A stretch of DNA of 64,000 bases, taken from assembly GCA_018242295.1 (NCBI GenBank), contig JAFECE010000003.1:1-64000 (forward strand). The letters are read 5' to 3'. The position numbers and the translations under genes were made by a program. This document shows, piece after piece, positions 5,804 through 26,093 of the stretch. Below the pieces are notes generated by a model that saw nothing but the letters and a program-made list of their open reading frames with translations, had not been told where the DNA came from and ran no database searches. Position 1 is the first letter of the stretch, and the number at the start of each line of letters is the position of its first letter. The stretch is from Pseudomonadota bacterium (GTDB lineage: Bacteria; Pseudomonadota; Alphaproteobacteria; Rhizobiales; Hyphomicrobiaceae).

Positions 5804-7714
5804 ATGACCCTGACGACCTTCCAACCGTATCGCTCATCGCTCGACGTCGCGGCAATCGGCAACGGACGCGTTGCTGCGCTCATCGATCAAGGCGCACGGA
5901 TCGTGTGGTGGTGCTTTCCGCGACTGGATGGCGATCCGATCTTTTGCCGTTTGCTCGCGGGCGACGAGGACAAGGGCTTTTGCGATGTCGTGCTCGAGGG
6001 CCAAGTCTCGGCGCAATCCTACTACATACGCAACACCTGCATTCTGGAAACGATCCTGATCGCCGACAACGGCGCCAGCGTGAAGGTGACGGATTTCTGC
6101 CCGCGCTTCTGGCGTTACGACCGATCCTTCCATCCGACGCAACTCATTCGGCGGATCGAACCGCTAAGAGGATTGCCGCGCATCTCGGTGCGCGTCCGGC
6201 CGACGTATAATTATGGGCAGCCTGCGTGCAGCGCGTCGCACGGATCAAACCACATCCGGTATCTCTGCGGCACCACAGCCGTTCGCCTCACGACAGATCT
6301 TCCCGTGTCCTACATCGCGCACGAGACGTCGTTCTCGCTAACGCACCCGGCGACACTCGTCATCGGTTCGGATGAGCCAATCGAAAGCTCGATCGATTCG
6401 ATGTCGAGAGAGTTCCTCGAACGCACGCGCGATTTCTGGGTGACATGGGTCAGGGGTCTGGCCGTCAGCTACGAATGGCAGCCCGAAATCATACGCGCCG
6501 CGATTTCCCTCAAGCTCTGCACCTTCGAGGAGACAGGCGCCATCACGGCCGCTTTGACGACATCGATCCCAGAAGCGCCAAACACTCCGAGGACATGGGA
6601 TTACCGGTTCTGCTGGCTGCGTGACGCTTACTTCGTTATCCGCGCTCTCAATCGATTGGGCGCCACGCAATCCATGGAGAACTATCTCGATTACATCACG
6701 ACCGTCGTCTCCGACACGCAAACCCCATTGAAACCCGTCTACGGGATCGTTCACAACGATACTGCCGCGGAACGGATCGCGCCGCACTTGCAGGGCTATC
6801 TCGGCATGGGTCCCGTGCGCGTCGGCAATCTCGCGTCCGACCAGCTGCAGCATGACGCCTATGGCAGCGTGATCCTCGGCGTCGCTCAGATGTTCATCGA
6901 TCAGCGATTGCCGCGGATGGGCGACGTCAGCCTATTCCGCGAACTCGAATTTCTCGGAGAGCATGCGCGCCGTCTCTATCTGGAACCTGACGCGGGCATT
7001 TGGGAGTATCGCGGGCGTTTGCGCATTCATACGCACTCGGCGCTGCTCTGCTGGGTGGCATGCGATCGCCTTGCGCGCATTGCACAGCTTCTCGGCTTGC
7101 CTGACCGTGTGGTCCACTGGAAAGAATCCGCCGACAAGATCCGCGCGGAAATTCTCACCCGAGCCTGGAGCGACAAGCGCGGCTCATTCACTGGAGCATT
7201 CGATCACGACGAACTCGATGCCAGCGTGCTGTTATTAGGTGATCTGGGGTTCCTACCACCCACCGATCCGCGGTTCGTCAAGACGACCAATGCCATCGGC
7301 CGCGAACTCATGCGCAACGGCTTGATGTTGCGCTATGCGGCGGAAGACGATTTCGGCCTGCCGGAATCGGCATTTCTCGCCTGTCAGTTCTGGTACATCG
7401 ACGCACTCGCGTCCGTGGATCGAAAGGATGAGGCGCGCGAACTCTTCGACGAGCTACTGAAGAAACGCAACGCATTCGGGCTTTTGAGCGAGGACCTCAA
7501 TCCTGCAACCGGCCAGTTGTGGGGTAACCTTCCGCAGACCTACTCGATGGCCGGGATGATCAATTCCGCGATGACACTCTCGCGGACGTGGGAAGATGCC
7601 TGGTGCGGAGCGCCGGCAAAACACGACACCACTCCCAAAGGTCAGGAGCCGGCCGAGCATGATCTCACTGCCGCGGGCCTGATCAGTCCGCGCCGGCCGC
7701 TGAACGTCAACTGA
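5804..7714 (+). CDS. Glycoside hydrolase family 15 (glucoamylase-like) protein
   Basis: Predicted cytoplasmic alpha-glucosidase of the GH15 type, 636 residues and full length. No signal peptide is visible. The N-terminal all-beta domain (about 1-220) starts 'AAIGNGRVAALIDQGARIVW'. The catalytic (alpha/alpha)6 barrel carries the family motif 'WDYRFCWLRDA' near residue 265 and 'LWGNLPQTYSMAGMINSA' near 570. Bacterial relatives act on maltooligosaccharides, isomaltose or trehalose. The trehalose operon 1.4 kb downstream makes trehalose or a related glucan a reasonable but unproven substrate. The ATG follows a purine-rich site (AGGGGG, 5790-5795). The last 8 bases overlap the end of the convergent HWE kinase gene. 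Confidence 0.88.
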   Translation: MTLTTFQPYRSSLDVAAIGNGRVAALIDQGARIVWWCFPRLDGDPIFCRLLAGDEDKGFCDVVLEGQVSAQSYYIRNTCILETILIADNGASVKVTDFCPRFWRYDRSFHPTQLIRRIEPLRGLPRISVRVRPTYNYGQPACSASHGSNHIRYLCGTTAVRLTTDLPVSYIAHETSFSLTHPATLVIGSDEPIESSIDSMSREFLERTRDFWVTWVRGLAVSYEWQPEIIRAAISLKLCTFEETGAITAALTTSIPEAPNTPRTWDYRFCWLRDAYFVIRALNRLGATQSMENYLDYITTVVSDTQTPLKPVYGIVHNDTAAERIAPHLQGYLGMGPVRVGNLASDQLQHDAYGSVILGVAQMFIDQRLPRMGDVSLFRELEFLGEHARRLYLEPDAGIWEYRGRLRIHTHSALLCWVACDRLARIAQLLGLPDRVVHWKESADKIRAEILTRAWSDKRGSFTGAFDHDELDASVLLLGDLGFLPPTDPRFVKTTNAIGRELMRNGLMLRYAAEDDFGLPESAFLACQFWYIDALASVDRKDEARELFDELLKKRNAFGLLSEDLNPATGQLWGNLPQTYSMAGMINSAMTLSRTWEDAWCGAPAKHDTTPKGQEPAEHDLTAAGLISPRRPLNVN

Positions 7715-8813
7715 GTGAGGGGGCGCGACCGCGTGTCCGCCGTGTCGTCGCCTGCTTCAACACGGCGACGATGCGGCAACGAACGCCGTGCTCGTTGAAT
7801 TCACGCTCCACCTGGGCGCTCGGAAAGCCGCTATCGATCAGCGTCGTTCCGAGTCCGCGTCTTTCGGGAGCCTGGACGCGCGGGCCGCCGCGCTCGTCCC
7901 AGACGAGTTCGAAAGACGATTCATCGTCGTCGATCCGGCTCAGCGTCCATTTTACGCTGACCGTTCCGCGCTCGGCCGACCAGGCACCGTATTTTATGGC
8001 GTTCGTACCAAGCTCGTGAAGCGTCAACGCGAGCGCGCTCGCAACGTCGCCGGGAATGACTGTGTCGTGCCCGGCCATCTCGAACCGGTGCGCGCCAGGA
8101 GGCACAAGAGGTTTCAACGTTTCAACGATCAGCTCCTTCAGCGATGCGCCGAGGAAGCTGCGCGTTGCGATCAGGTCCATCGCGTTCCCCATCGCCGAGA
8201 GGCGGCCGGACAGCGACTGCGCGAAACTGTCCACGTCACGGCTAAACCGCGCCGACTGGCTGACGAGGCCGGCTATGACGGCAAAAGTGTTCTTCAGGCG
8301 ATGGCGAAGTTCGATGTTGAGCTGCTCCAGCTGCAGCTCGCCGAGCGCGCTATCCTGAAATAATGCCTCGTTGCGCGCGCGCTCGTTCACCAGCCCCTCG
8401 ACTTTGCGATTGAGGAGATGGACGACGGCAATGATGAGACAAGACAGGATCGTGAAACTTCCGAGGGCCACAATCGCCGGAGGATCGATGCTCCAACCGG
8501 AAACAGGAAGAAAGTAGTACCAGCTGAACAGTAATGAGGCAGCGGCGACCATCAACGCCGGCCCGGTTCCTGCGACGAGCGACGCCACGAGAACAGCCAG
8601 AAAAAAGGTCAAGAATGGCATGCTGTCCTGCAGCCAACGCGTCAGACCCATTCGCGCCAACGCAGCGCTGGCAAAAATTGCCATCGCTACCGGATAGGCT
8701 ATGAGTGGCCGGCGCCTGAGGCGCGGAAACACACGTTCGATCAGATTATCGACGAGTTGAACCATTCGCCCCACGAACGGCCCCGCGCCCATCCAGCATG
8801 CGGCAGCCAGCAT
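7707..8813 (-). CDS. Membrane HWE-family histidine kinase with KdpD-like (DUF4118) sensor region
   Basis: Sensor kinase of 368 residues. Residues 40-135 contain about four closely spaced hydrophobic helices ('FLTFFLAVLVASLVAGTGPA', 'TILSCLIIAVVHLL'), in the manner of the DUF4118 membrane module of KdpD-like kinases, with a short helix leading to the kinase core. The core shows 'ELRHRLKNTFAVIAGL' (phosphoacceptor His), the N-box 'HELGTNAIKYGAWS' and 'WDERGGP', all HWE/HisKA_2 signatures. There is no receiver domain, so the partner regulator is elsewhere or is one of the receivers in the first two genes. The gene is divergent from otsA, with a 278-base gap, and converges on the GH15 gene. The N-terminal start is not certain. 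Confidence 0.88.
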   Translation of the reverse strand: MLAAACWMGAGPFVGRMVQLVDNLIERVFPRLRRRPLIAYPVAMAIFASAALARMGLTRWLQDSMPFLTFFLAVLVASLVAGTGPALMVAAASLLFSWYYFLPVSGWSIDPPAIVALGSFTILSCLIIAVVHLLNRKVEGLVNERARNEALFQDSALGELQLEQLNIELRHRLKNTFAVIAGLVSQSARFSRDVDSFAQSLSGRLSAMGNAMDLIATRSFLGASLKELIVETLKPLVPPGAHRFEMAGHDTVIPGDVASALALTLHELGTNAIKYGAWSAERGTVSVKWTLSRIDDDESSFELVWDERGGPRVQAPERRGLGTTLIDSGFPSAQVEREFNEHGVRCRIVAVLKQATTRRTRGRAPSLS

Positions 8814-8994
8814 TCCGGCGGCGCTGTAGAGCCGTCGCCGTCCCCCATTTGCATTCCCGGAAAGCTATCATGAAATGCGGGCTCACGCGAGCACCCGCGG
8901 CGGACTGTTGCAAAGAATGCTTGCCACCAATGGATCGACGCGCCTCGCAATCACCGCGGAACAGGGCGAGAACACCGCGGCGGGTCGCAGAGAG

Positions 8995-9020
8995 GGAACC
9001 TACAGCAATACCGGGGGGTT
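8995..9020 (+). promoter_or_regulatory. Candidate EcfG (general stress sigma factor) promoter for otsA
   Basis: GGAAC at 8995-8999, a 17-base spacer, then GGTT at 9017-9020. The known EcfG/RpoE2 consensus is GGAAC-N16-17-CGTT, so only the first base of the -10 element differs. A transcript would start near 9028, about 64 bases before the otsA GTG. otsA is a known EcfG-regulon gene in several alphaproteobacteria. The assignment is by motif only. Confidence 0.5.
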
Positions 9021-9091
9021 TATGAAAAAGCGCAGTGCCGCTCGGGGGCAGGCTCTATTCTTGGCTCTCGAGTCGGTTGGAAGGAGGTCGC

Positions 9092-10567
9092 GTGGCCAGA
9101 CTTGTCATGGTGTCGAACCGTGTCATCGACTTCAATGTGGCCCAGCAGGCAGGTGGCGTCACAGTTGCGATTTACAACACCCTCGCCCGGCAAAACGGAT
9201 TTTGGTTCGGCTGGGATGGACAAATCGATAATTCCGATTCACCCCAATTAAAGGTCGCGAGCGTCAACGGCCACACCACCGTGACGGAACCGCTGACGAC
9301 GGACGACTACAACGAATACTATCTCGGCTATTCGAACTCGGTCTTGTGGCCCGTGTTTCATAATCGGCTCGATCTTGCGCAGTTCGAGGCCGGTTATTAT
9401 TCCCGCTATATGGCGGTGAACGAGAGATTTTCCCGTCATCTCGCTCCGCTCATCGAACCTGACGACGTCATTTGGGTGCACGACTATCATCTAGTACCGA
9501 TGGCGCTCGAGTTGCGCAGGCTCGGCATCGAGAACCCGATCGGCTATTTCCTCCATATCCCGGTCGGCCCCGCGCAGGCTCTGCTCGCCATTCCGGAATA
9601 CAAGGAGATCGCCAAGGCTCTCAGCGCCTACGATCTCATCGGCCTGCAGACCCAGTCAGACGTGAGGAATTTGATCGACTTCTTCCAGCAAAGCGTATTC
9701 GGCAGGCTTCTGCCGTCGGGCCGCATTCGCGTTTTCGAGGCGGAGCTCGACATCGGCTGCTTCCCCGTCGGCATCGATCCCGCCGACTTCGCCTTCGGCC
9801 CCAATGAAGCGGAAGCATTGAAGGCGCCCGAGACCTCGGAGACGAACCGGATCATCGGCATCGACCGGCTGGACTACACCAAGGGTCTGCCGCAGAAATT
9901 CAAATCCTACGGGAGATTCCTTGAAGAATATCCGGAATACCGTCGGCGCATCGTGCTATCGCAGTTCGCGCCGCCGACGCGCGAAAGCGTCGAAGCGTAT
10001 GCCGACATCAAGGCCGAACTCGAATCTCTCGCGGGTTCGATCAACGGCCGGTTTGGCGAACTCGACTGGGTGCCGATCAACTACATTCACAGAACCATTC
10101 CTCGTGCAGAGCTTCGCGACGTCTATCGCTCATCGCGGATCGGATGGGTTACGCCGCTATTGGACGGCATGAATCTCGTCGCGAAGGAGTACATCGCCTG
10201 TCAGAATCCGGCCGACCCGGGGGTTCTTATCCTGTCGAAGTTCGCGGGCGCCGCGGAGCAGCTCGCCGATGCGGTTCTCGTCAATCCTTACGACCTCAGC
10301 GACCTCGTGCACGGCTTGCAGATTGCGCTTGAAATGCCGCTCGACGAACGGCGCGCGCGTCACGCGCGCCTTTTCGATATCGTGCGGAAAAGCGACTCAA
10401 ATGACTGGAGCCGCAGCTATTTTTCGGCCCTGATCAAGGCCGGACAGCGGCGCCTCGGGCGAGCGCTAAAGTCGTCTTCTGAAATGGGGAAAGCTCTGGA
10501 GCGATTGCAGAGCACCGCCAAGAAGAACAATCCGCCTAGCCGCTTCGCGGCCAATGTGGTGACATAA
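9092..10567 (+). CDS. otsA: Trehalose-6-phosphate synthase
   Basis: GT20 enzyme making trehalose 6-phosphate from a nucleotide-diphosphoglucose and glucose 6-phosphate, in the cytoplasm. The GTG at 9092 is chosen because the conserved N-terminus 'LVMVSNRV' follows at once and a strong ribosome-binding site, AAGGAGG (9081-9087), sits 4 bases upstream; the frame is open further upstream but without such a signal. The product has 491 residues. Visible family motifs are 'FWFGWDG' in the donor/acceptor region, 'VWVHDYHL', 'IIGIDRLDYTKG', and 'TPLLDGMNLVAKEY' with 'DPGVLILSKFAGAAEQL'. The length is normal. It is the first gene of an operon with a ROK kinase, a PfkB kinase and otsB, with a candidate stress promoter upstream. 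The stop overlaps a possible ATG of the next gene (TAATG). Confidence 0.95.
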   Translation: MARLVMVSNRVIDFNVAQQAGGVTVAIYNTLARQNGFWFGWDGQIDNSDSPQLKVASVNGHTTVTEPLTTDDYNEYYLGYSNSVLWPVFHNRLDLAQFEAGYYSRYMAVNERFSRHLAPLIEPDDVIWVHDYHLVPMALELRRLGIENPIGYFLHIPVGPAQALLAIPEYKEIAKALSAYDLIGLQTQSDVRNLIDFFQQSVFGRLLPSGRIRVFEAELDIGCFPVGIDPADFAFGPNEAEALKAPETSETNRIIGIDRLDYTKGLPQKFKSYGRFLEEYPEYRRRIVLSQFAPPTRESVEAYADIKAELESLAGSINGRFGELDWVPINYIHRTIPRAELRDVYRSSRIGWVTPLLDGMNLVAKEYIACQNPADPGVLILSKFAGAAEQLADAVLVNPYDLSDLVHGLQIALEMPLDERRARHARLFDIVRKSDSNDWSRSYFSALIKAGQRRLGRALKSSSEMGKALERLQSTAKKNNPPSRFAANVVT

Positions 10568-17283: not shown

Positions 17284-18105
17284 TCAGGCTTCAACTTCGA
17301 AATTTTCAGAACCGCCAGCGGTTTCCGGCGCCTCGGGCGGCCGCCGGCTCGAATTTCTGTCGCGCCACATATGAAAAATCTTCAGCAGCCGGTAGTCGGC
17401 CTGGATCCATGAATACCGCAGGCCGTTCAGGCCTCCCGTGATATGTCGTCGGCCGATATAATATTTGAAGAAGTTTACGGGGAACTCGAGCGCCATTCGC
17501 GCCACGAGCGCCGACGGCGACGAGTTTGCGTGCTTGGCGGAGAGCTGCATCCTTTCGCCGAGTTTTCGCTTCAGGTCCTCATAGCTGCGGAACATATAGT
17601 GGTAAGCGGGCGCGCGAAGTATGCCGACGGCGTGACCGTCAGTCACCACTGTGTCGTGGACCTTGGAATTGCGAAACCTGACGACGCGGCGATCGTATAA
17701 GCGCACGTAGTGGTGATCGCGCGCCCACGGTCTTGGCCGTTTGGTATTCGGATAAACGAGTTCCAGCGGCATGCTGTAAGCAACGCGCGACGGCATTCGC
17801 TGCGCAAAGAGCGCAATGATTTCTCTTCGCAGCGATGGCGTGATGACTTCATCCGCATCGAGGTTCAGCACCCAATCGTTGCGGCACTGGTCTTCCGCAA
17901 ATCGCTTTTGCCCGCCGAAGCCCAGCCATCGCTGAGTGATCACGCGGCAGCCTTCAGATGCGGCGACGCGGACGGTATCGTCGGTGCTTTGGCTATCGAC
18001 GACGACAACTTCATCGACCCACGGCCGCACGGAACGAATGGTGCGGGCGATGCGATCGGCTTCATTCTTGGCGATGATGAAACAGGAGATCGGCAATTTA
18101 TCCAT
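17284..18105 (-). CDS. Family 2 glycosyltransferase, WaaE/KdtX-like
   Basis: Predicted inverting glycosyltransferase of 273 residues with a GT-A fold, acting at the cytoplasmic face. The N-terminus reads 'ISCFIIAKNEADRIARTI' with the nucleotide-binding 'VVVDSQSTDDT', then 'GFGGQKRFAE' and the metal-binding 'WVLNLDADEVI'. This combination is typical of the WaaE/KdtX lipopolysaccharide-core glucosyltransferase group. A basic amphipathic C-terminus ('KIFHMWRDRNSSRRPP') could contact the membrane. The ATG follows AAGG at 9 bases. It probably works with the MsbA-like transporter downstream. The acceptor sugar is not known. Confidence 0.88.
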   Translation of the reverse strand: MDKLPISCFIIAKNEADRIARTIRSVRPWVDEVVVVDSQSTDDTVRVAASEGCRVITQRWLGFGGQKRFAEDQCRNDWVLNLDADEVITPSLRREIIALFAQRMPSRVAYSMPLELVYPNTKRPRPWARDHHYVRLYDRRVVRFRNSKVHDTVVTDGHAVGILRAPAYHYMFRSYEDLKRKLGERMQLSAKHANSSPSALVARMALEFPVNFFKYYIGRRHITGGLNGLRYSWIQADYRLLKIFHMWRDRNSSRRPPEAPETAGGSENFEVEA

Positions 18106-18724
18106 AAAAAATGCCTTTCAAAATCGACGTTAACATCACTTCAGACATAACGCATGCCGTCCGCATTTTGCCGAAATCAGCCGGGCAAATCGTTCGCCAG
18201 CCTTTTCGACACACTGCATCGTCATCGAATACTTCGCGTTTGATTTGTGCTCGGCCTAACGACTGAGAACATTCGGACTAACTCGAAACCTTTAAAGAGT
18301 GACGCGCTGGTGAAGCTTGAAATGAAGCCGCACATGGACCGCATACACCGGGCATTGCTCAATTGACAGTCCGAGACTCTATTATAATTTCTCGAGTTGC
18401 CACGGCGCCACCGGAGTGCGGGCGTTAGGAATGGCGCAAAAAAATTTGAGCATTTCACCATTTGCGAACACGCCGCCTCACCTTAATTGCCAAACGCGGC
18501 CTATCTTTTGTCCAAGGGTTCAGCGCGCCTTATTCGGAGTTGACGCCAGAGCGTTTCAGCGCGCCCATCGTATTGGGCGGAGCTCAGAGTGCGTATGGGA
18601 CCGATTGCCAAGGAAGCCTGTTGATCGCGTCAGCCGTTGGCCAGGCGAATCCGCAGTCCCACGCTGCGGCAATTCTCTCATCACTGCCGCAACAGCTTCA
18701 GCGCGTGGAACGCTTTTGAAAAAG
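18106..18724. other. Gene-poor stretch before the tRNA-Pro island
   Basis: About 620 bases without a gene I can defend. A plus-strand frame at 18462-18719 (TTG start) reads protein-like near its end ('SELTPERFSAPIVLGGAQS') but has no convincing start or ribosome-binding site; it could be a gene remnant or chance. The upstream promoter of the minus-strand glycosyltransferase presumably lies in the first 100 bases. Confidence 0.5.
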
Positions 18725-18771
18725 AATGGTCGGAGCGAGAGGATTTGAACCTCCGACCCCCGGTCCCCCAG
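18725..18771 (-). repeat. Left attachment-site repeat (tRNA-Pro 3' fragment)
   Basis: Forty-seven bases matching the anticodon loop, T arm, acceptor 3' strand and CCA end of the tRNA-Pro at 24787-24864, with a single difference at 18762 (g where the right copy has a). The sequence diverges directly after position 18771, so no D arm or 5' acceptor strand exists here. It is not a functional tRNA but the att site left after integration. Confidence 0.9.
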
Positions 18772-18870
18772 TTCGGTAAAACCAGATTTTCCACGATTCC
18801 GGTTGTCTTCTCATGTCTTTATAAAATATGTTTTATTTCAGCTTGCTATCCATTTTTTCTAAGACGCGAC

Positions 18871-19373
18871 ATGTCAAGTTGCCGGAAATCGGACGAACCG
18901 GGACACCGCGGGGACACGGAATTGAAACTTCTACCCCTGCGTCGTAGCGTTGCGCATGCCGAAATCGCTAGCAATGTTCTTGCAGTGAAGTCGCGTCTCA
19001 AAGGGGAGCCCGCAGTTTACCAGATTGCGGGCGTACCTGGATTGCATTTGGCTGTGCTCGGCGAAGGACGGGGCTTGTGGCGCATTCGATATCGTCCGCG
19101 GCGCGTGCTGAAAGGCGTTGGTATACCCTCGGGGACGCTCGGACTATCGAACTTGGCGACGCAATTCGGAAGGCCAAGGATCTGCTAGCCGCGCTGCAGC
19201 TCGACGGCATCGACCCAAACGCAGAAGCTTATCGGCGGGCAGCCGCGCAACTCACGTTTGAAGATGCCTTCAAAGAATGGCTGGACCACCACAGCCGTGA
19301 AATCAGCCTCTACCTCCGCCCACGAATTCTTCAGCTGAAACGCCGAACGACAGCCGTGCTCGGGAAGTCCTGA
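18871..19373 (+). pseudogene. Tyrosine-recombinase integrase remnant, frameshifted and truncated
   Basis: An N-terminal arm-binding domain of a phage/island integrase is readable from ATG 18871, through 'GLWRIRYRPRRVLKG'. The frame must then shift near 19105-19120 to continue with 'RRWYTLGDARTIELGDAIRK', 'ALQLDGIDPNAEA' and 'LTFEDAFKEWLDHHS', which are typical of DUF4102-type integrases. Reading stops at 19373, before the catalytic domain with the Arg-His-Arg-Tyr residues, and I cannot find that domain downstream. Position and direction next to the attachment repeat support the identity. The protein cannot be active. Confidence 0.8.
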
Positions 19374-19537
19374 CAGACGTCGCAATCGTGGCGGCGCTTA
19401 TTACAACGTCGATTGCAGCTTATTGAGCGGGAGCGTCTGGACCTTGCGCTTCACCGATCCAACTTACCGTTGGATCTTCAAGACTTCGACGCACCAAAGG
19501 ATCTAGGAATTCGGGATCTAATTGTTTGGAGCACGTT

Positions 19538-20635
19538 TTAGGTCCCGTATCGGAAATGCCAGAAGCGACGGCCTCGCCTTCGGAATAACTTCTTTGCAAA
19601 TGAATATATTTCTTGATCTAGCTGGGTCACAGCGCTGATCGCCGCGATTGTTTTTCGCGGCAACGCGGATCGTTTTGTGCCAACGCTTGCGTTCTCATGT
19701 GGAATTTGGAGTGATGGCCCAAACCCGAGGTTTCGAGAAATCTCGACGGCATCAGCATCGAACGTATCAGTGAATCCGACAAAGTCGAATCTCTCTAGGT
19801 TCCTTTTTGCTAGGTCAAGCATCTGGGCCTCGCTATAGTCCATGACTGTTGGACCCAGTTTGGCAGCATCTTTCGGGTAGACCCAACCGTGCGCAAGCTG
19901 CCAAGCCTGATTATTCCAGATCATGCTATGGCAATGAAATCGTGGAATATCAGATTCAGAAAATTGGCTGCCAAATTCCACAAACTGGTCAATGCTCATT
20001 TTGTTGGCTATTTCGTAAATAGGGTACTCCTCGGGGGCGCGGCTTCGGCAAAATGAATAAAGAGATACTATCCTGTCTATTGGGTCTCTAAGAAAAGTGA
20101 ACGAATATCGCTCAGGCAAGAACTGGGCCGCAAACGCGAAGCCGAAATGACCGGAAATAAACGCTTTGTCTTTGTAAGCATGCAGCGGTTCAGCGAGCCA
20201 ATCTCCGTGGCTGATCACGTCGTCGCTTCCGTACTGCTCTCGCGCTATAGCAACAATCGAAGTGCCAGCTGTCTTTTGCGTATGCAGAAATAGCGCTTTT
20301 CGCAATGCCAAGCCTTCGATCTCCAAATGATCTGCGGATGCCAAGGGAGAAGGCCTAGGCCGATCAGCTAGTACCGGAAAATATACCAAAGATTCGAAGA
20401 ACCGAAAGAAACAGAATTCCATTCGGCCACGAAATCCGCGGAGTTCGTTCGGGAGGCAGTCGAAGAACAGCACCATGTTGAGCCGAGCAAGCTTCTCCAT
20501 TTCGCGAAGAGCCGATGGGCATACCAATTCAACGACAGATGGCCCCAACACACAATTAGAAGAGACACCAAGAAGATGAGAAGTGTTGGCGACGTCGCTG
20601 AATGCAGCTGCTGCAAAAGAACCTTGAACGGGCAC
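19538..20635 (-). CDS. Sulfotransferase family protein with unexplained N-terminal extension
   Basis: Predicted PAPS-dependent sulfotransferase, open over 365 residues. The sulfonate-donor binding loop 'LHTQKTAGTSI' is at about 118-127, and the 3'-phosphate motif 'FTFLRDPIDRIVSLYSF' follows some 65 residues later, the usual spacing in carbohydrate sulfotransferases. The approximately 105 residues before the loop do not look like the normal N-terminus. They include 'EKLARLNMVLFFD' and a hydrophobic Phe-rich stretch, and may be a fusion with the tail of another gene or untranslated sequence, so the true start may be far downstream (near 20310). Codon use and base composition differ from the chromosomal neighbours, as expected for island cargo. 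The likely substrate is a surface or extracellular glycan. Confidence 0.75.
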   Translation of the reverse strand: MPVQGSFAAAAFSDVANTSHLLGVSSNCVLGPSVVELVCPSALREMEKLARLNMVLFFDCLPNELRGFRGRMEFCFFRFFESLVYFPVLADRPRPSPLASADHLEIEGLALRKALFLHTQKTAGTSIVAIAREQYGSDDVISHGDWLAEPLHAYKDKAFISGHFGFAFAAQFLPERYSFTFLRDPIDRIVSLYSFCRSRAPEEYPIYEIANKMSIDQFVEFGSQFSESDIPRFHCHSMIWNNQAWQLAHGWVYPKDAAKLGPTVMDYSEAQMLDLAKRNLERFDFVGFTDTFDADAVEISRNLGFGPSLQIPHENASVGTKRSALPRKTIAAISAVTQLDQEIYSFAKKLFRRRGRRFWHFRYGT

Positions 20636-20914
20636 TTCATCGGAGCTGCTCTCACCGCAGCCACCGTCAAAGAAGGCACTATAGTATGGGTTGCAAGATA
20701 GCGTTGCGCCACGAGCATGCGCTGCGAAGGTCCCAGAGGTCCGAGAGCGATCGTTTTCCCCGTCGAATGATCACCATGGAATGGAGAACTTCGATCGAGT
20801 CAATTATTCCCGGTTCGGTCGCGCATAGTGCAGTAAGTTCAAAAATGAGATTGGTGAGCGGCGTCTTGCCGGCGGGCGGAAGCGTAATTTTATACGATCA
20901 ACTCTTCAACCCCA

Positions 20915-21164
20915 TCAGCCAAAGTAGGGAGTTGCCCAAAGCTTCGCCGGCCAATGGGCCCAGCCCCAATCTATGCCCATTTCGAAAATCTTGGGATTTG
21001 CGGGAAAGCGCCAAGGATGCTTCCTTCGCTATGACGTCTCGAGCCTTGAGCAGCCTAGGACCGTCTTCGCTTTGACTGGGGCGCTCATGGTATTCTTTAG
21101 GGTCGATCGTCACGTGTAAAGGAATGCCATTTATAATGAGATGATTGGGGTCTTTCCATTCCAA
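20915..21164 (-). pseudogene. Fragment of a methyltransferase/hydroxylase-like gene, frameshifted
   Basis: From ATG 21164 the frame reads 'LIINGIPLHVTIDPKEYHE' and 'KARDVIAKEASLAL'. A one-base shift near 20995 is then needed to read 'NPKIFEMGIDWG', which resembles the start of a Rossmann-type motif I ('PK.I.E.GI..GG') found in class I methyltransferases and cephalosporin-hydroxylase-like proteins. In that frame a stop comes at 20915-20917. Only the N-terminal third remains. The family call is tentative. Confidence 0.45.
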
Positions 21165-21202
21165 GTGAGCGCGATACCTGAATATGTTCGAGAAATACGG
21201 AC

Positions 21203-21418
21203 TTATATTTCAGAACATATTTGAAGGTTCCTTTGATCCGACGCAGACCTCTTTCTCAATTCATCTTCAACTAGCGACACAGAGTGATCACAAAAAATAG
21301 ACTCCGCCGCATAAGAATTCGGGGGCTCCGTATTCTGGGCAGGCCAACCGGCAAATGAAACAAGAGCTCTGACCATTCGGTCATTAACGCCGTCTGCTTC
21401 GAAGACTGCTTTGGCCAT
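21203..21418 (-). CDS. Short island ORF of unknown nature, possibly a remnant
   Basis: A 71-residue frame starting 'MAKAVFEADGVNDRMVRAL' and ending 'ASDQRNLQICSEI'. The composition is protein-like and soluble, but I recognise no family. It lies between the methyltransferase-like fragment and the WbsX gene in a part of the island where other genes are broken, so it may be a piece of a larger lost gene. Confidence 0.3.
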   Translation of the reverse strand: MAKAVFEADGVNDRMVRALVSFAGWPAQNTEPPNSYAAESIFCDHSVSLVEDELRKRSASDQRNLQICSEI

Positions 21419-21533
21419 GGCGCAGCCAACCGGACTTATGACCGATTCGAGAAATCATCTAATATTGTGAGGCTTCTTTCGCCCGATCATGGTAGAGGTT
21501 TTTGAGCGCCAATCCCACCCATGCTCTCGCAAA

Positions 21534-22763
21534 TTAAGGTCGAAGTGTGGCGCCCTGCTTGGCATGTCGAGCGGGCCGCAAGGTCCGCTTCACGTTGCGC
21601 CACCTGCGGCTTATCCAAGATTTCTGCGGCAGCTTATACAATATCGCGGTATTCTCATTAGATTGTTGGGGCGGAGGCCCTTTATGCGTCCAGCCAGTCA
21701 ACGATGATCCTTCTTTCGCCCGGATGGTTGCTTCTAGGTAGCGGCGACCAAACTTTCTATCCGGTTCAAGATGGCATCCTTCCGCCCATTCGTTCCATGC
21801 GTTGATGAATACAAATCTTTCTTGTCCGGGGAATTCTTGGGCCGTCTTAAATATCGCTTCAGAGAGCCAAAATTCGTAATTTTCGGGAGAACCATTCAGC
21901 ACTAGCGTTGCGCGATCTCCCCGACGTGCCGTGTTATCCCATGAGGGGAATACTCCCCGAAAACCACTTGAGTCGGGGCTGTATCGACGATCCAAATATT
22001 TCTTCGCAACGTCGGCATAATCCGCGCAGTAGCCGTGAAACGGAGCAAAAAAGCCCATTTTTTGAGCCATGTTGGGCAGGTTCATGTTGTGCGGTGGAAA
22101 TTCTACTGCGCTATCAAAGCCAAATTTCTTGTGATCCCAATTCGAGTGGGTCAGCGCGCAGGCTGTGTGAATTTGAGGCATGCCTTGGCTGGCACAATAC
22201 TCACGCCAAATCCTCAGCGTCTCCTGGCAGTCCGGAAGATGCTGTGGGTTATAAACCAGAATGAGTGGAGCCCCATCAATTCTAATGTAGCGGGGATCCC
22301 TCAGATACTTGATGAGGTCCTCGATAAATCTACGATCGGCATCGGGACCATAGCTCTGCTCGATCAAGATTTCCTGTTCGGCGCCATCCCATCTTCGCGT
22401 CCAATTCTCATTTGCCCAGCATAAGCAAAAAGGCATATCACTTTCAGGATCTGCCAACATATCATCGAGCGGCTTTTCGAGGAGGCGCTTCCCACCGAAC
22501 CAATAGTAGTAGTAGCAAAACCCATCGATGCCGTACTGCTTTGCCAGTAGAATCTGATCTCTTCTGGTCTCGCGCAATCGCAGATCATAAAATCCGAGGT
22601 CTGTGGGCAAATGTGGCTGGTAGTGCCCTGGGAAAAGCGGCCTTGCCTTTGTAGCATTGGTCCACTCGGTGAAGCCTTTTCCCCACCAAAGATCATTTTC
22701 TGGTATCGGGTGAAACTGAGTTAGATAGAACGCGAGCAGTTTAACCGATGATCGATCGGGCAC
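21534..22763 (-). CDS. WbsX-type (GH99-like) glycan biosynthesis protein
   Basis: Protein of 409 residues of the WbsX / glycosyl-hydrolase-99-like family found in O-antigen and other surface polysaccharide clusters. Diagnostic stretches are the N-terminal 'LAFYLTQFHPIPENDLWWG' and 'GFTEWTNATKARPLFPGHY', then 'IDGFCYYYYWFGGKRLLEKP', 'CLCWANENWTRRWDG' and 'FINAWNEWAEGCHLEPD'. The start is GTG at 22763 with GGGGA about 9 bases upstream. It lies 18 bases after the methyltransferase gene and is probably co-transcribed with it. The exact reaction in this family is not well established (endo-mannosidase-like fold versus glycosyltransferase-associated). Length and motifs look intact. Confidence 0.85.
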   Translation of the reverse strand: MPDRSSVKLLAFYLTQFHPIPENDLWWGKGFTEWTNATKARPLFPGHYQPHLPTDLGFYDLRLRETRRDQILLAKQYGIDGFCYYYYWFGGKRLLEKPLDDMLADPESDMPFCLCWANENWTRRWDGAEQEILIEQSYGPDADRRFIEDLIKYLRDPRYIRIDGAPLILVYNPQHLPDCQETLRIWREYCASQGMPQIHTACALTHSNWDHKKFGFDSAVEFPPHNMNLPNMAQKMGFFAPFHGYCADYADVAKKYLDRRYSPDSSGFRGVFPSWDNTARRGDRATLVLNGSPENYEFWLSEAIFKTAQEFPGQERFVFINAWNEWAEGCHLEPDRKFGRRYLEATIRAKEGSSLTGWTHKGPPPQQSNENTAILYKLPQKSWISRRWRNVKRTLRPARHAKQGATLRP

Positions 22764-22781
22764 GCTATTTTCCCCATCAGT

Positions 22782-23633
22782 TTAAGAATTGGCGACTATC
22801 TGAATTTTTTCCAATGTGGACGTCGTGTCCTCGCCTTCTGGAGAAGGTACAAATTTCATCGTTTCCGTCCAATACTCGACTGTCTTGTCGCTGGGCGCCG
22901 GCACATCTGCATCCATGAGACGCAAATTCAATTTCGCCCGCTCTTGAGGTACGGCACGACTCACGACCTGATAAACATGGGAAAAGCGATTGTTCTGCAA
23001 AGCCTGTCTTAAATTATCCGGCAATCGCCGCCACCGCGGAGCGAACTCCGTCATCTCCGGGGTTCTTACGACAAATTCGGACTGTTCTATCGATAGCCCC
23101 TCCGAGTTATAGAGGTTCTGGATATTCTTTATTCCAAAGAAGCGAATATGGGTGCGATCCAAAAGCCCCCAAGGCCTATATTCGAAGTCCTCGTCGAATA
23201 GGCATCCAGCGATTGCAGCATGGCCGACATGAGGGATGGATAGGACTATCGACCCCGTGTCGTTGAGAAGCGACTTCATGCCTCTGAGAACGCTCCACGG
23301 ATCGTAAACATGTTCGAGAACGTCAGCCGCAATGACAACATCGAAGCAGCCTTCCTTTGACTTAAGTACATCACTCCAAGAACTGTTATTCAGATCCAAG
23401 GGATATACTTTGCGTGCGAAGGGGGTGAGTCTTTGAAGAGCTGATTGGTCGATCTCAACCGCCACCACGTCACAGCCAAGCGTTCCGGAAAGATGTTTAG
23501 TGATTGAGCCGGGACCCGCTCCGACTTCGAGGACCTTTTTGCCGTTGCCCACCATCCTGATTACCCGAGCGGGCGCAACGTCGCTGTCAAGATCAATGTC
23601 ATATTCATAGGTATGTCGAGGACTAGCCGTCAT
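22782..23633 (-). CDS. SAM-dependent class I methyltransferase
   Basis: Predicted methyltransferase of 283 residues. Motif I is 'KVLEVGAGPGSITKHLS' (about 33-49), with an acidic residue for the SAM ribose in 'VVAVEIDQSA' and the post-motif 'FDVVIAADVLEHVYDP', typical of Methyltransf_11/23 domains. The C-terminal approximately 80 residues are less conserved and may bind the acceptor. It is the first gene of a two-gene unit with the WbsX protein in the tRNA-Pro island, which suggests methylation of a surface sugar; that is inference. No good ribosome-binding site is visible before the ATG. Confidence 0.85.
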   Translation of the reverse strand: MTASPRHTYEYDIDLDSDVAPARVIRMVGNGKKVLEVGAGPGSITKHLSGTLGCDVVAVEIDQSALQRLTPFARKVYPLDLNNSSWSDVLKSKEGCFDVVIAADVLEHVYDPWSVLRGMKSLLNDTGSIVLSIPHVGHAAIAGCLFDEDFEYRPWGLLDRTHIRFFGIKNIQNLYNSEGLSIEQSEFVVRTPEMTEFAPRWRRLPDNLRQALQNNRFSHVYQVVSRAVPQERAKLNLRLMDADVPAPSDKTVEYWTETMKFVPSPEGEDTTSTLEKIQIVANS

Positions 23634-24423
23634 GTGGACTAATGGCTCGCAATTCGAAAAATTTGGCCGACCGTCAGACGTTCTGAAACTAAGCGTCGTC
23701 CTTGCGTCGGCGCCGGGAAAACTCGTTGGCTGCGTTGAAAGCCCCGACTACAAACACCTTCTCCCCCGAGAAGGCGCATCCTTGAGAGGACATGTACCGG
23801 AGTTGCTTCTTAGCGGCTCGCTCGTGGCTGTCAAGGTCGCTGCAGGACAATGAGGCTACGCATCCGTGGACAACTTGCGGATCCGCAAAGGCCCAACTAA
23901 TCGCTGAAGTTCAATGTCACAAAGTTAGGAGTGCGGAGCTTACAGCAAGCCTCCGACATGCTTTGTGAGTTGAACCTGGTGCCAACAACGATGGTTATCG
24001 CATCGGGGGATTTGGGAACGGCAGCCAACGATCGAGGCCCGCCATGTCACCCAGACCCGCTCAGCGGCGCTTCTCTGCATATGCGAGCCGCCTTGCAATT
24101 AATCCGCAAATTTCGGGCGACAAAAAAAGATATCCCCGCTCACCGAAGTGAGTGCGACTATTCACTGTTTTCATCGAGGGAAAATTTATGCCGACGAACC
24201 CGTTGGGGGTCATTGCATGGCGGCGGAGCGGGGCGCACGGGTCGGATTGGATTGCATTTCCTTCCCGACCCCTCACCTACGCGCAGAGGAGTGTACCCGG
24301 CTCGCCGTCACCAGATAAGCTTGAACCTCGGCAATCGATAGCTGCTAATCACCGAATTCCGACCTATCGTGTGGAGATGGTGATATATGGTTAGCAGAGG
24401 GGGTCTCTGCGGAGTCAACTTCA
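23634..24423. other. Gene-free right part of the island
   Basis: About 790 bases with only short frames on both strands, none with a recognisable domain or ribosome-binding site. Together with the broken genes on either side, this looks like decayed DNA inside the island. The promoter of the methyltransferase gene should lie in the first 100-200 bases. Confidence 0.5.
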
Positions 24424-24614
24424 ATGACTGCTTCAAATTATTCGATCCTTGCAGCATCGATTTTTTTAATTGTTGCTGTTCTACAATTGGCCCGCGCGAT
24501 ATTCCGTACTATTTAAATGTTGGCACCATATCGATTCCAGTGTGGGCCAGTTGGATCGCATTTGCGGTTGCAGGCCTGTTAGCCTGGCTCGGGTTTACAG
24601 CCCCACCCAGCTGA
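24424..24614 (+). pseudogene. Frameshifted small two-helix membrane protein
   Basis: ATG 24424 opens 'MTASNYSILAASIFLIVAVL', a first hydrophobic helix, and stops after 'ARAIFRTI'. The adjacent frame continues with 'VGTISIPVWASWIAFAVAG' and 'LLAWLGFTAPPS', a second helix ending at 24614. A single frame change near 24505-24520 would restore a small protein of about 62 residues with two transmembrane helices. I recall similar short proteins in Rhizobiales genomes, without a known function. It is probably inactive. Confidence 0.55.
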
Positions 24615-24784
24615 GTGGGAGCACTCGATCAAGTACAGCGCGCGTTACATGCTCGGGCAACGGCTTGCTCATAGCCGCGAGAACCTGCGAGTCGCAAAAC
24701 ACCGGCAAGTCCCTTCAATCGGGACACAGATGGGAAACGAGCGATTTTTAGGGTGAGTTGCGAATTCTGTAAGTCGTTAAAAAA

Positions 24785-24831
24785 AATGGTCGGAGCGAGA
24801 GGATTTGAACCTCCGACCCCCAGTCCCCCAG
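24785..24831 (-). repeat. Right attachment-site repeat within tRNA-Pro
   Basis: The partner of the repeat at 18725-18771, lying inside the intact tRNA-Pro gene and covering its anticodon loop to CCA end. The tRNA has remained whole because the incoming element carried a copy of its 3' half. Confidence 0.9.
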
Positions 24832-24864
24832 ACTGGTGCGCTAACCAGGCTGCGCTACGCTCCG
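24787..24864 (-). tRNA. tRNA-Pro (anticodon GGG)
   Basis: Full cloverleaf on the minus strand. The acceptor stem CGGAGCG pairs with CGCTCCG, followed by A-CCA (CCA encoded). The D arm is GCGC...GCGC. The anticodon stem CCAGT/ACTGG carries the loop CTGGGGG, hence anticodon GGG. The T arm is GGAGG-TTCAAAT-CCTCT. Length is 78 bases with CCA. It is the integration target of the adjacent island. Confidence 0.95.
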
Positions 24865-25061
24865 ATTTGGAAATCTCGATGGCATCGGCCTGAACTTCAC
24901 GTCAGGGAGGCCACCCGGCCGATTTGGCCGGTCGATCTTGGCGTTGGGTACCCGGAACGCTCCCCCCCGTCAAGGACGATGTACCCGCCGGCCGCGCATC
25001 GGGGTTTTTCGGGCTCAGACCGAAGGTTCCGGATCCGCGAAGCCCCAGCGCACCCAATGTC

Positions 25062-26093
25062 TTAACGACGGTATTCCGGCAATCGCTTCAGGATATCGAT
25101 GATCGGATTATCGACCCAGGCATGGGTTACGAGATCCCGGTGCCGGCCGTCGCCTCCCGGAACGACCGCGACGCCGCCCGTGGCCAGCCGGGTGTTTATC
25201 TGCGGACTGACGTCGACGTCGTGCGCGGCAAGGATGTCCTCGAACTGCGCGTTCTGATTGCGGGTGGAGCCAAGGTAGGCGCTGACTAAGAACGCCGATG
25301 GATCCGCCTCGATCCAATGGGCGAACTTATCGAGGTCGCCGTAAAGCGAGTCCAAGAGCACCACACCACGGACACGCTTCTTCAATCCGCCGCGCTCGAT
25401 CGCGGACGCAGCCGCGACGTATCCGCCGCTGTAGGCGACGATGATGACCGGCATGCTCGCAAACGTGCGGAGCGATTTGCGATCGCCGTGGAGGCGCGCG
25501 AGCTGCTGTCCGGCCTCGCCGATGAATCGTCCGAAGACACCAGGCTGCCAGAATTTGCCGGCGCTCGAATCTGCGGCATCGAAGGCAAGCTGAGGCGCGA
25601 CGAGAACGACATTCGCATTCGATGCCGAGATCTGGTCCGGAACCTTCTGGCGCGCGAGAACGTCGCGCTCAAGCGTTGCGCCGTGGCCGTGAAAGAAAAC
25701 CATCATCAACGCCGGGCGGCGGATATCGAAGCCCTTCGGAATGTGCAGAAGCACCCGATTGTCGTTGTAGGTCTGATCTTCCCAATAGACGCGGCCGGAG
25801 CCGGTGCGATGCCCCTTGCGGCCGTTTTCATCGACGTTGAGAAACGGCGCGTTCGTGCCCGGCATGGTCCCATGATAGGGAAAGGGCGCCGTATCGAAGG
25901 GGACGAGAGTCGTCTTTGCGGTCTTGGTTGGGCCGCTTCTCGATTGGACCTGCGTTTTGGAAGGCGCGACAGGATGCTTGGCCGTCTTGCTTGCCGCGCC
26001 AGACTCCGAAGCATTCAACGTCCATGCGAGGCTTGCGCCGAGAGCTTGCGCAAGAAATCTTCGTCGCCCGCAATCTATTCTCGGCGGCGCCAT
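25062..26093 (-). CDS. Tat-exported alpha/beta-hydrolase-like protein
   Basis: Protein of 343 residues. A twin-arginine signal is visible as 'CGRRRFLAQALGASLAWTL', so it should be exported folded through the Tat system encoded at 57.9-59.4 kb. A low-complexity Thr/Lys/Ser linker follows to about residue 65. The remainder has hydrolase features: 'LMMVFFHGHGATLERDV' (oxyanion region after strand 3), a nucleophile-elbow-like 'IIVAYSGGYVAAAS' with Ser flanked by Tyr and Gly-Gly, and a late His in 'RDLVTHAWVD'. The nucleophile motif is a variant (A-Y-S-G-G) of the usual G-x-S-x-G. The substrate is unknown. It is divergent from the APC permease gene. Confidence 0.72.
   Translation of the reverse strand: MAPPRIDCGRRRFLAQALGASLAWTLNASESGAASKTAKHPVAPSKTQVQSRSGPTKTAKTTLVPFDTAPFPYHGTMPGTNAPFLNVDENGRKGHRTGSGRVYWEDQTYNDNRVLLHIPKGFDIRRPALMMVFFHGHGATLERDVLARQKVPDQISASNANVVLVAPQLAFDAADSSAGKFWQPGVFGRFIGEAGQQLARLHGDRKSLRTFASMPVIIVAYSGGYVAAASAIERGGLKKRVRGVVLLDSLYGDLDKFAHWIEADPSAFLVSAYLGSTRNQNAQFEDILAAHDVDVSPQINTRLATGGVAVVPGGDGRHRDLVTHAWVDNPIIDILKRLPEYRR

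What the first reader, a model, noticed from the sequence alone, without database searches (positions are those of the whole stretch)
18725..24831. Decayed genomic island in tRNA-Pro(GGG) with 47-bp attachment repeats
Two copies of the tRNA-Pro 3' half (46/47 identical, 6060 bases apart) flank a block that is A+T-richer than its surroundings. The right copy is within an intact tRNA; the left is a bare 3' fragment next to an integrase remnant pointing inward. This is the signature of a tRNA-targeting integrative element that has become fixed.
Basis: partly seen in the sequence, partly recalled or inferred. Interest (0 to 1): 0.72.

Follow-up and report, generated by a model that had tools for sequence, protein, structure and literature searches.

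The report
Stranded mobile island in tRNA-Pro
A piece of foreign DNA once inserted into a proline tRNA gene of a Hyphomicrobium bacterium, lost the genes it needed to move, and kept its attachment ends plus a few intact-looking sugar-polymer genes: a well-documented example of an ordinary kind of genomic island at a busy landing site.

Summary
The genome is a Hyphomicrobium (inferred from named relatives). One relative (G012) has an empty site. The nearest relative (G014) has a different 21.6-kb insert with another integrase type. Ten of 15 genus genomes with this locus show an extra copy of the tRNA 3' half. Full-length elements of the window's family exist in G019 and G003. Against them the window keeps both ends: codons 3-124 of a 438-codon integrase, frameshifted (18961-19325); the first 12 codons of an excisionase-like HTH gene (24637-24672); the core repeats; and a putative arm-site pair at each end. 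Two refinements: only the mobility genes are clearly decayed (methyltransferase, WbsX-type and sulfotransferase-like genes are open, and the first two look constrained), and the displaced tRNA half has drifted, so precise excision would leave an A-C mismatch in the tRNA anticodon stem. Best filed as a decayed tRNA-targeted genomic island that works like a CIME: a new member of a known kind. Whether the cargo came with the element or later is open.

The parts
18719..18771 (+). Distal att copy: displaced 3' half of tRNA-Pro(GGG), anticodon loop to 3' end plus 8 nt
   Evidence: Direct repeat of 24779-24831; its 3' flank base 18724 G agrees with the empty site of G012, the tRNA copy's does not
18900..18917 (+). 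Putative integrase arm-site pair, distal end: GGGACAC twice, 11 bp apart
   Evidence: like pairs in G019 and G003; function inferred
18961..19325 (+). Integrase remnant: codons 3-50 (18961-19104) and 53-124 (19110-19325) of a 438-codon gene, in two frames, catalytic domain missing
   Evidence: tblastn with the G019 integrase
19538..20635 (-). Sulfotransferase-like ORF; homology starts at residue 109-110, so the true gene is probably about 19538-20320
   Evidence: Pfam Sulfotransfer_2 4.8e-11; 59-60% to ORFs of G014 and G016
21534..22763 (-). WbsX-type glycosyltransferase gene, open, 409 aa
   Evidence: Pfam Glyco_tran_WbsX 7.9e-136; 79% to G014 copy; pN 0.133, pS 0.838
22782..23633 (-). Methyltransferase gene, open, 283 aa
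   Evidence: Pfam Methyltransf_23 1.6e-16; 78% to G014 copy; pN 0.147, pS 0.773
24637..24672 (-). First 12 codons of an excisionase-like HTH gene; the rest is gone
   Evidence: tblastn with the G019 HTH protein, E 7e-06 in 18600-24900, 12/12 identical then divergent
24721..24738 (+). Putative integrase arm-site pair, tRNA end, one mismatch
   Evidence: function inferred
24779..24831 (+). Proximal att copy, the part supplied by the element
   Evidence: polarity
24787..24864 (-). tRNA-Pro(GGG), intact, the integration target
   Evidence: ARAGORN
17284..18105 (-). Left flank gene (glycosyltransferase-like by reading), marks the chromosome side of the distal end
   Evidence: Next to the site in G012, G014 and others
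25062..26093 (-). Right flank gene (hydrolase-like by reading), beside the tRNA in 15 of 22 genus genomes

Best explanation
An integrative element of a tyrosine-recombinase family integrated into tRNA-Pro(GGG) by recombination between its att core and the part of the gene from the anticodon loop to the 3' end. Its own copy completed the tRNA (24779-24864) and the chromosome's 3' half was displaced to the far end (18719-18771). The element had its integrase gene at the far end and an excisionase-like HTH gene at the tRNA end, both reading inward. Loss or replacement of the middle cut both genes off, after about 124 and 12 codons, and left the two att ends with putative arm sites around foreign polysaccharide-type genes. 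Shown: both ends, the empty site in a relative, full-length relatives, the truncations. Inferred: crossover in the anticodon loop, arm-site function, loss of self-mobility, that the ends could still be used by a related integrase (CIME-like). Left open: whether the cargo came with the element.
For: Repeat and tRNA; empty site in G012; different insert in nearest relative G014; extra tRNA 3' copies in 10 of 15 genus genomes with the locus; all 14 distal copies compared keep anticodon loop to 3' end; 7 of 7 PF13356 integrase genes lying beside a tRNA-Pro copy have the same relation to it as the window's remnant; integrase and HTH stubs at opposite ends as in full-length G019 and G003 elements; arm-site pairs exactly at both ends (2 in 64 kb, shuffle mean 0.08, 0 of 100 shuffles with two); composition and synonymous saturation of the cargo.
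Against: G012 is a fragmented metagenome assembly and about 78% identical in the flanks, so the empty site is not from a close strain. A second integrase type at the site reads outward (G014, G003, G020), and one older G001 element has it at the tRNA end, so the layout is not universal. The window's tRNA-side arm pair is not significant in the lag test (274 of 500 shuffles), and the pattern was drawn partly from the window itself. No full-length element with this cargo was found.
Confidence: 0.92

Rival explanations
1. The ends belong to an old, almost fully deleted element, and the cargo (about 19.4-24.6 kb) is a separate later insertion, for instance by recombination from a polysaccharide cluster like those of G014 and G016, so the island is a composite of two events. 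This keeps the tRNA-island reading but changes the origin of the cargo.
For: G014 and G016 carry the methyltransferase, WbsX and sulfotransferase genes together away from tRNA-Pro; the full-length elements in G019 and G003 carry other genes; both end genes are cut.
Against: The sulfotransferase has another orientation relative to the pair than in G014 and G016; copies are long diverged (pS 0.77-0.84), so it was not a recent copy from such a cluster; cargo inside such islands commonly varies.
Confidence: 0.35
2. The repeat is a chance or segmental duplication of a tRNA end, and the block is ancestral.
For: None found.
Against: Empty site, integrase remnant beside the fragment, like fragments with integrases in relatives, foreign composition.
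Confidence: 0.01

Closest known systems
tRNA-targeted genomic islands with an anticodon-loop att site (Islander database; PMC4383910, passages seen)
   Same: Intact tRNA plus displaced 3' fragment as end markers, tyrosine integrase, tandem arrays at one tRNA, crossover class around the anticodon loop.
   Different: Islander requires an integrase gene and calls its islands putatively active; here the integrase is a stub. Integrase lies at the fragment end, whereas PMC2704930 (passages seen) says it is often adjacent to the tRNA.
CIME, cis-mobilizable element (PMC5704250, passages seen)
   Same: Integration gene lost, both att ends kept, sits at a site where other elements integrate in tandem in relatives.
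   Different: Mobilisation not shown; no transfer genes are known for this family; the displaced tRNA half has mutated.
Full-length elements of the same integrase family at tRNA-Pro in G019 (about 16.9 kb) and G003 (about 17.1 kb)
   Same: Same tRNA, integrase and HTH gene of the same families at the same ends, 11-bp-spaced GGGACAC pairs at both ends.
   Different: Integrase and HTH genes open, an AAA_25 protein and a resolvase (in G003 the resolvase by reading), other cargo.
KplE1 prophage recombination module (PMC2951348, passages seen)
   Same: Integrase with arm-type sites plus an excision factor at a tRNA site.
   Different: That its integrase and TorI genes lie at opposite ends is recalled, not seen in the passages; sequence relation not tested.

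Membership tests
tRNA-targeted genomic island | Intact tRNA at one end and displaced tRNA fragment in the same orientation at the other | tested here: met
tRNA-targeted genomic island | Tyrosine integrase gene inside | tested here: inconclusive
   Only a frameshifted N-terminal part, about 28% of the gene
tRNA-targeted genomic island | Empty site in relatives | tested here: met
   G012; only one such case among the 15 genomes with the right-flank gene
tRNA-targeted genomic island | Content foreign to the host | tested here: met
   GC, GC3 and synonymous saturation against G014; WbsX matched in 7 of 103 family genomes
CIME | Integration gene lost | tested here: met
   in G000 the G019-type integrase matches only the two pieces in the window
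CIME | attL and attR retained | tested here: met
   Cores and putative arm sites at both ends; function not tested
CIME | Derived from an element that had transfer genes, now lost | tested here: inconclusive
   Of ten proteins of the G019 and G003 elements scanned with Pfam none matched a relaxase; not all their ORFs were scanned
CIME | Can be mobilised by a related element | not testable with these tools
   Needs an excision assay

The most novel reading that the evidence does not exclude
The window is a stranded member of an undescribed family of integrative elements in Hyphomicrobium and its family, with integrase and excisionase-like gene at opposite ends, paired arm sites 11 bp apart on both arms, and a target that changed between tRNA-Pro(GGG) and tRNA-Arg(ACG) among integrases only about 26% different (G019 and G012). 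Here drift of the displaced tRNA half has locked the island in, because precise excision would now leave a damaged tRNA.
Probability: 0.4. Interest if true: 0.42.

Novelty: new member of a known kind. Interest (0 to 1): 0.3.

Why it matters
It shows an integration hotspot in Hyphomicrobium with a readable history: empty, singly occupied, stacked and decayed states of one tRNA-Pro site in different species. It gives a clean case of an element losing mobility genes at both ends while open cargo genes stay, and a testable idea that decay of the displaced tRNA half makes such an island irreversible. The Pro/Arg pair of targets among close integrases could help map what sets tRNA choice.

Tried and rejected
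Ancestral block or plain duplication: rejected. G012 as a mixed empty/occupied population: its contig C30 starts with an att core and an integrase of this type, which suggested an excised copy, but the core is a tRNA-Arg(ACG) fragment. Recent copying of the cargo from the G014 cluster: rejected by synonymous saturation. Looking in G000 for the rest of a G014-type cluster through one neighbour gene: no match, uninformative. Small ORFs at 20898-21164, 21203-21418, 23632-23853 and 24387-24614: no accepted family; a TylF match (E 0.11) and an RGS-like match (E 0.26), both below cut-off, were not taken. ORFs 23931-24341 and 24061-24276 were scanned with PHROGs only, no match. The G019 integrase in plasmid records: 32 records, all under 60% identity, best-ranked row 28%. 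The HTH protein as a whole finds nothing in G000; the 12-codon stub is too short for that search. Papers: the listings show none on islands at tRNA-Pro in Hyphomicrobium; only the best 15, 15 and 10 of 60, 1,493 and 428 papers were listed, and the library holds open-licence papers only. PMC11476347 (passages) lists tRNA-Pro(GGG) among Sinorhizobium tRNA genes; I took nothing further from it. Williams 2002 on att sublocation was not held.

Full report
Observation. The window holds a 53-bp direct repeat, 18719-18771 and 24779-24831, 51/53 identical (mismatches listed). The right copy lies in tRNA-Pro(GGG), 24787-24864 on the minus strand, the only tRNA ARAGORN finds in the window. The left copy is a bare 3' half. 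GC of the interior is 51.5% against 57.2% and 60.0% in the flanks.

Source. The window is contig C5 of genome G000. That it is Hyphomicrobium is inferred: the right-flank protein matches nine named loci, six titled Hyphomicrobium (83-97% identity), two titled Proteobacteria bacterium and one Rhodospirillaceae (41%). By equal contig length, G014 is probably record RXJH01000003.1, G001 Hyphomicrobium facile NZ_FPCH01000002.1 and G012 JAFECH010000027.1.

Relatives. Of 22 genus genomes, 15 have the right-flank gene, and in all 15 a tRNA-Pro match lies beside it (one search read). Ten of the 15 also show a second copy or a 3' fragment of this tRNA on the element side: G000, G001, G003, G007, G010, G014, G016, G018, G019, G020 (in G016 the two copies are on two contigs, and in G003 and G020 the fragments lie 102-153 kb from the tRNA). 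Five show none in that list, which was cut at its end: G004, G008, G012, G015, G017. G012 is an empty site: its tRNA-Pro ends about 390 bp from the left-flank gene on one 20.5-kb contig. The window's flanks joined at the repeat align to it across the junction over 111 columns at 95.5%; most of that piece is the tRNA, and the flank genes align as separate pieces at 71.5% and 80.3%. G015 has about 30 kb between the flanks and no fragment, which I did not resolve. G004, G008 and G017 lack the left-flank gene nearby, so they say nothing on occupancy.

Nearest relative. G014 matches the flanks at 92.0% and 93.6% nt, but its 21.6-kb insert gives no match to the window's interior at blastn E 1e-3, and a 380-aa integrase of another type lies beside its fragment. 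So the two species hold different elements at one site.

Stacks. G001, G003 and G010 carry two fragments each. In G003 the element 2411329-2428435 ends in a fragment, and an integrase of the other type lies directly past it, with the intact tRNA 102 kb further on. This fits new elements entering the restored tRNA, so the most distant fragment would be the oldest; the full 102 kb was not read.

Core. I compared 14 distal copies: window, G014, G019, two in G003, G018, two in G010, G007, two in G001, G020, G002, G009. They were chosen by hand from the matches; weaker or other partial matches were left out. All 14 keep the stretch from the anticodon loop to the tRNA 3' end, with small changes in the window, G018 and one G010 copy. 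Eight diverge right at the loop edge, three run 4 nt further, G002 8 nt, one G001 copy 11 nt, and G007 holds a nearly whole tRNA. This resembles the anticodon-loop class of tRNA att sites (PMC4383910, passages seen). Crossover in the loop is inferred.

Integrase. Seven PF13356 genes lie next to a tRNA-Pro copy (G001, G002, G003, G007, G009, G010, G019), matched by hand; all 7 start beside that copy and read away from it on the same strand as the window's remnant does relative to its fragment. In G002 and G009 the intact tRNA is not on the same contig. The layout is not universal: a second integrase type (G014, G003, G020) lies at the fragment end but reads outward, and one older G001 element has its integrase at the tRNA end. 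With the G019 integrase (438 aa), the window shows codons 3-50 at 87.5% and 53-124 at 59.7% in two frames, then nothing. G000 has only these two matches to it, though an open PF13356 integrase of another kind sits elsewhere in the genome (C2).

HTH gene. At the tRNA end, G019 has a gene with an HTH_17 domain (1.2e-06) and PHROG excisionase matches (3.9e-06, 0.0025); G003 has a 54% relative in the same place. The window keeps its first 12 codons at 24637-24672. So both end genes of one element family are present as stubs, at the right ends and in the right direction, which ties the two att copies to one element.

Arm sites. Between core and integrase, G019, G003 and the window have GGGACAC twice, 11 bp apart. 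G019 has the same pair on the tRNA side; G003 and the window have one there with one change. The pattern with one mismatch occurs twice in 64 kb, once at each end; shuffles give mean 0.08 and 0 of 100 reach two. The pattern was drawn from these elements, the window included, so this is not an independent test. In all 8 elements of the integrase clade compared (window, G019, G003, G012, G121, G086, G078, G083) an 11-bp-spaced repeat of at least 8/10 lies roughly 125-155 nt past the core; 11 was the best spacing, alone or tied, in 7 of 8 (not G019). Single tests range from 0 to 36 of 500 shuffles, 30 of 500 for the window's distal site. The window's tRNA-side site fails that test (274 of 500). 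Of five other DUF4102-type elements, three show such a repeat (0, 5 and 3 of 500) and two do not (384 and 389 of 500). Arm-site function is inference from the lambda-type integrase model.

Target change. G012 and G121 carry integrases of this clade (74% and 53% to G019) beside fragments of tRNA-Arg(ACG), with the full tRNA genes found in both genomes. In G121 the geometry is the same. G086, G078 and G083 integrases (43-45%) lie beside tRNA-Pro fragments, of which G078's is only 20 nt long because its contig starts there.

Cargo. The interior holds a sulfotransferase-like ORF, a WbsX-type glycosyltransferase and a methyltransferase. G014 and G016 have the three genes together elsewhere, with the sulfotransferase in the other relative orientation. 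Against G014, methyltransferase, WbsX and sulfotransferase have pN 0.147, 0.133 and 0.273 and pS 0.77, 0.84 and 0.81 (dS saturated), whereas two flank genes have dS 0.23 and 0.28. So they are foreign or long-diverged copies that stayed under protein-level constraint; three-way arithmetic on the pN values does not make the window copies the faster ones. Saturation means that constraint after integration is not separately shown. WbsX matched 7 of 103 family genomes. About 1 kb at 23.64-24.63 and 0.9 kb at 20.64-21.53 show no recognised gene.

Lock-in. Base 18762 G differs from the tRNA copy. In the joined-flank sequence ARAGORN still sees tRNA-Pro(GGG), but with an A-C mismatch in the anticodon stem. 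None of the other 13 copies compared has this change. If crossover is in the loop, precise excision would leave that tRNA. Its effect on function is not tested.

Comparison. This is a tRNA-targeted genomic island that has lost its mobility genes. The CIME definition (integration and transfer genes lost, both att sites kept; PMC5704250, passages seen) fits in structure; the transfer history is open, so I say it works like a CIME rather than that it is one. PMC2704930 (passages seen) says the integrase gene is often beside the tRNA; here it is at the other end.

Verdict. Real, well explained, new member of a known kind. Interest 0.30.

Noticed in passing
L123 (G012:C30) 10-54 and L127/L143 (G121:C2): Integrases of the same clade as the window's remnant lie beside displaced fragments of tRNA-Arg(ACG), so close relatives use two different tRNA targets.
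   Followed up: partly
L070 (G019) 6689-9449: The full-length G019 element carries genes that read like arsenic resistance (arsenate reductase, ACR3-type transporter); named from the translations only, not tested with a family search.
   Followed up: no
L065 13259-13336 (G007): The distal copy in G007 is a nearly whole tRNA-Pro(GGG) gene that ARAGORN calls, so some elements at this site bring most of the tRNA with them.
   Followed up: no
L063/L064 (G015): About 30 kb lies between the two flank genes without any tRNA-Pro fragment found; hydrogenase-like by reading of translations.
   Followed up: no
window 18480-18718: This stretch between the conserved left flank and the distal att copy does not match G014, which has about 960 bp of other sequence there; it may be an older remnant.
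   Followed up: no
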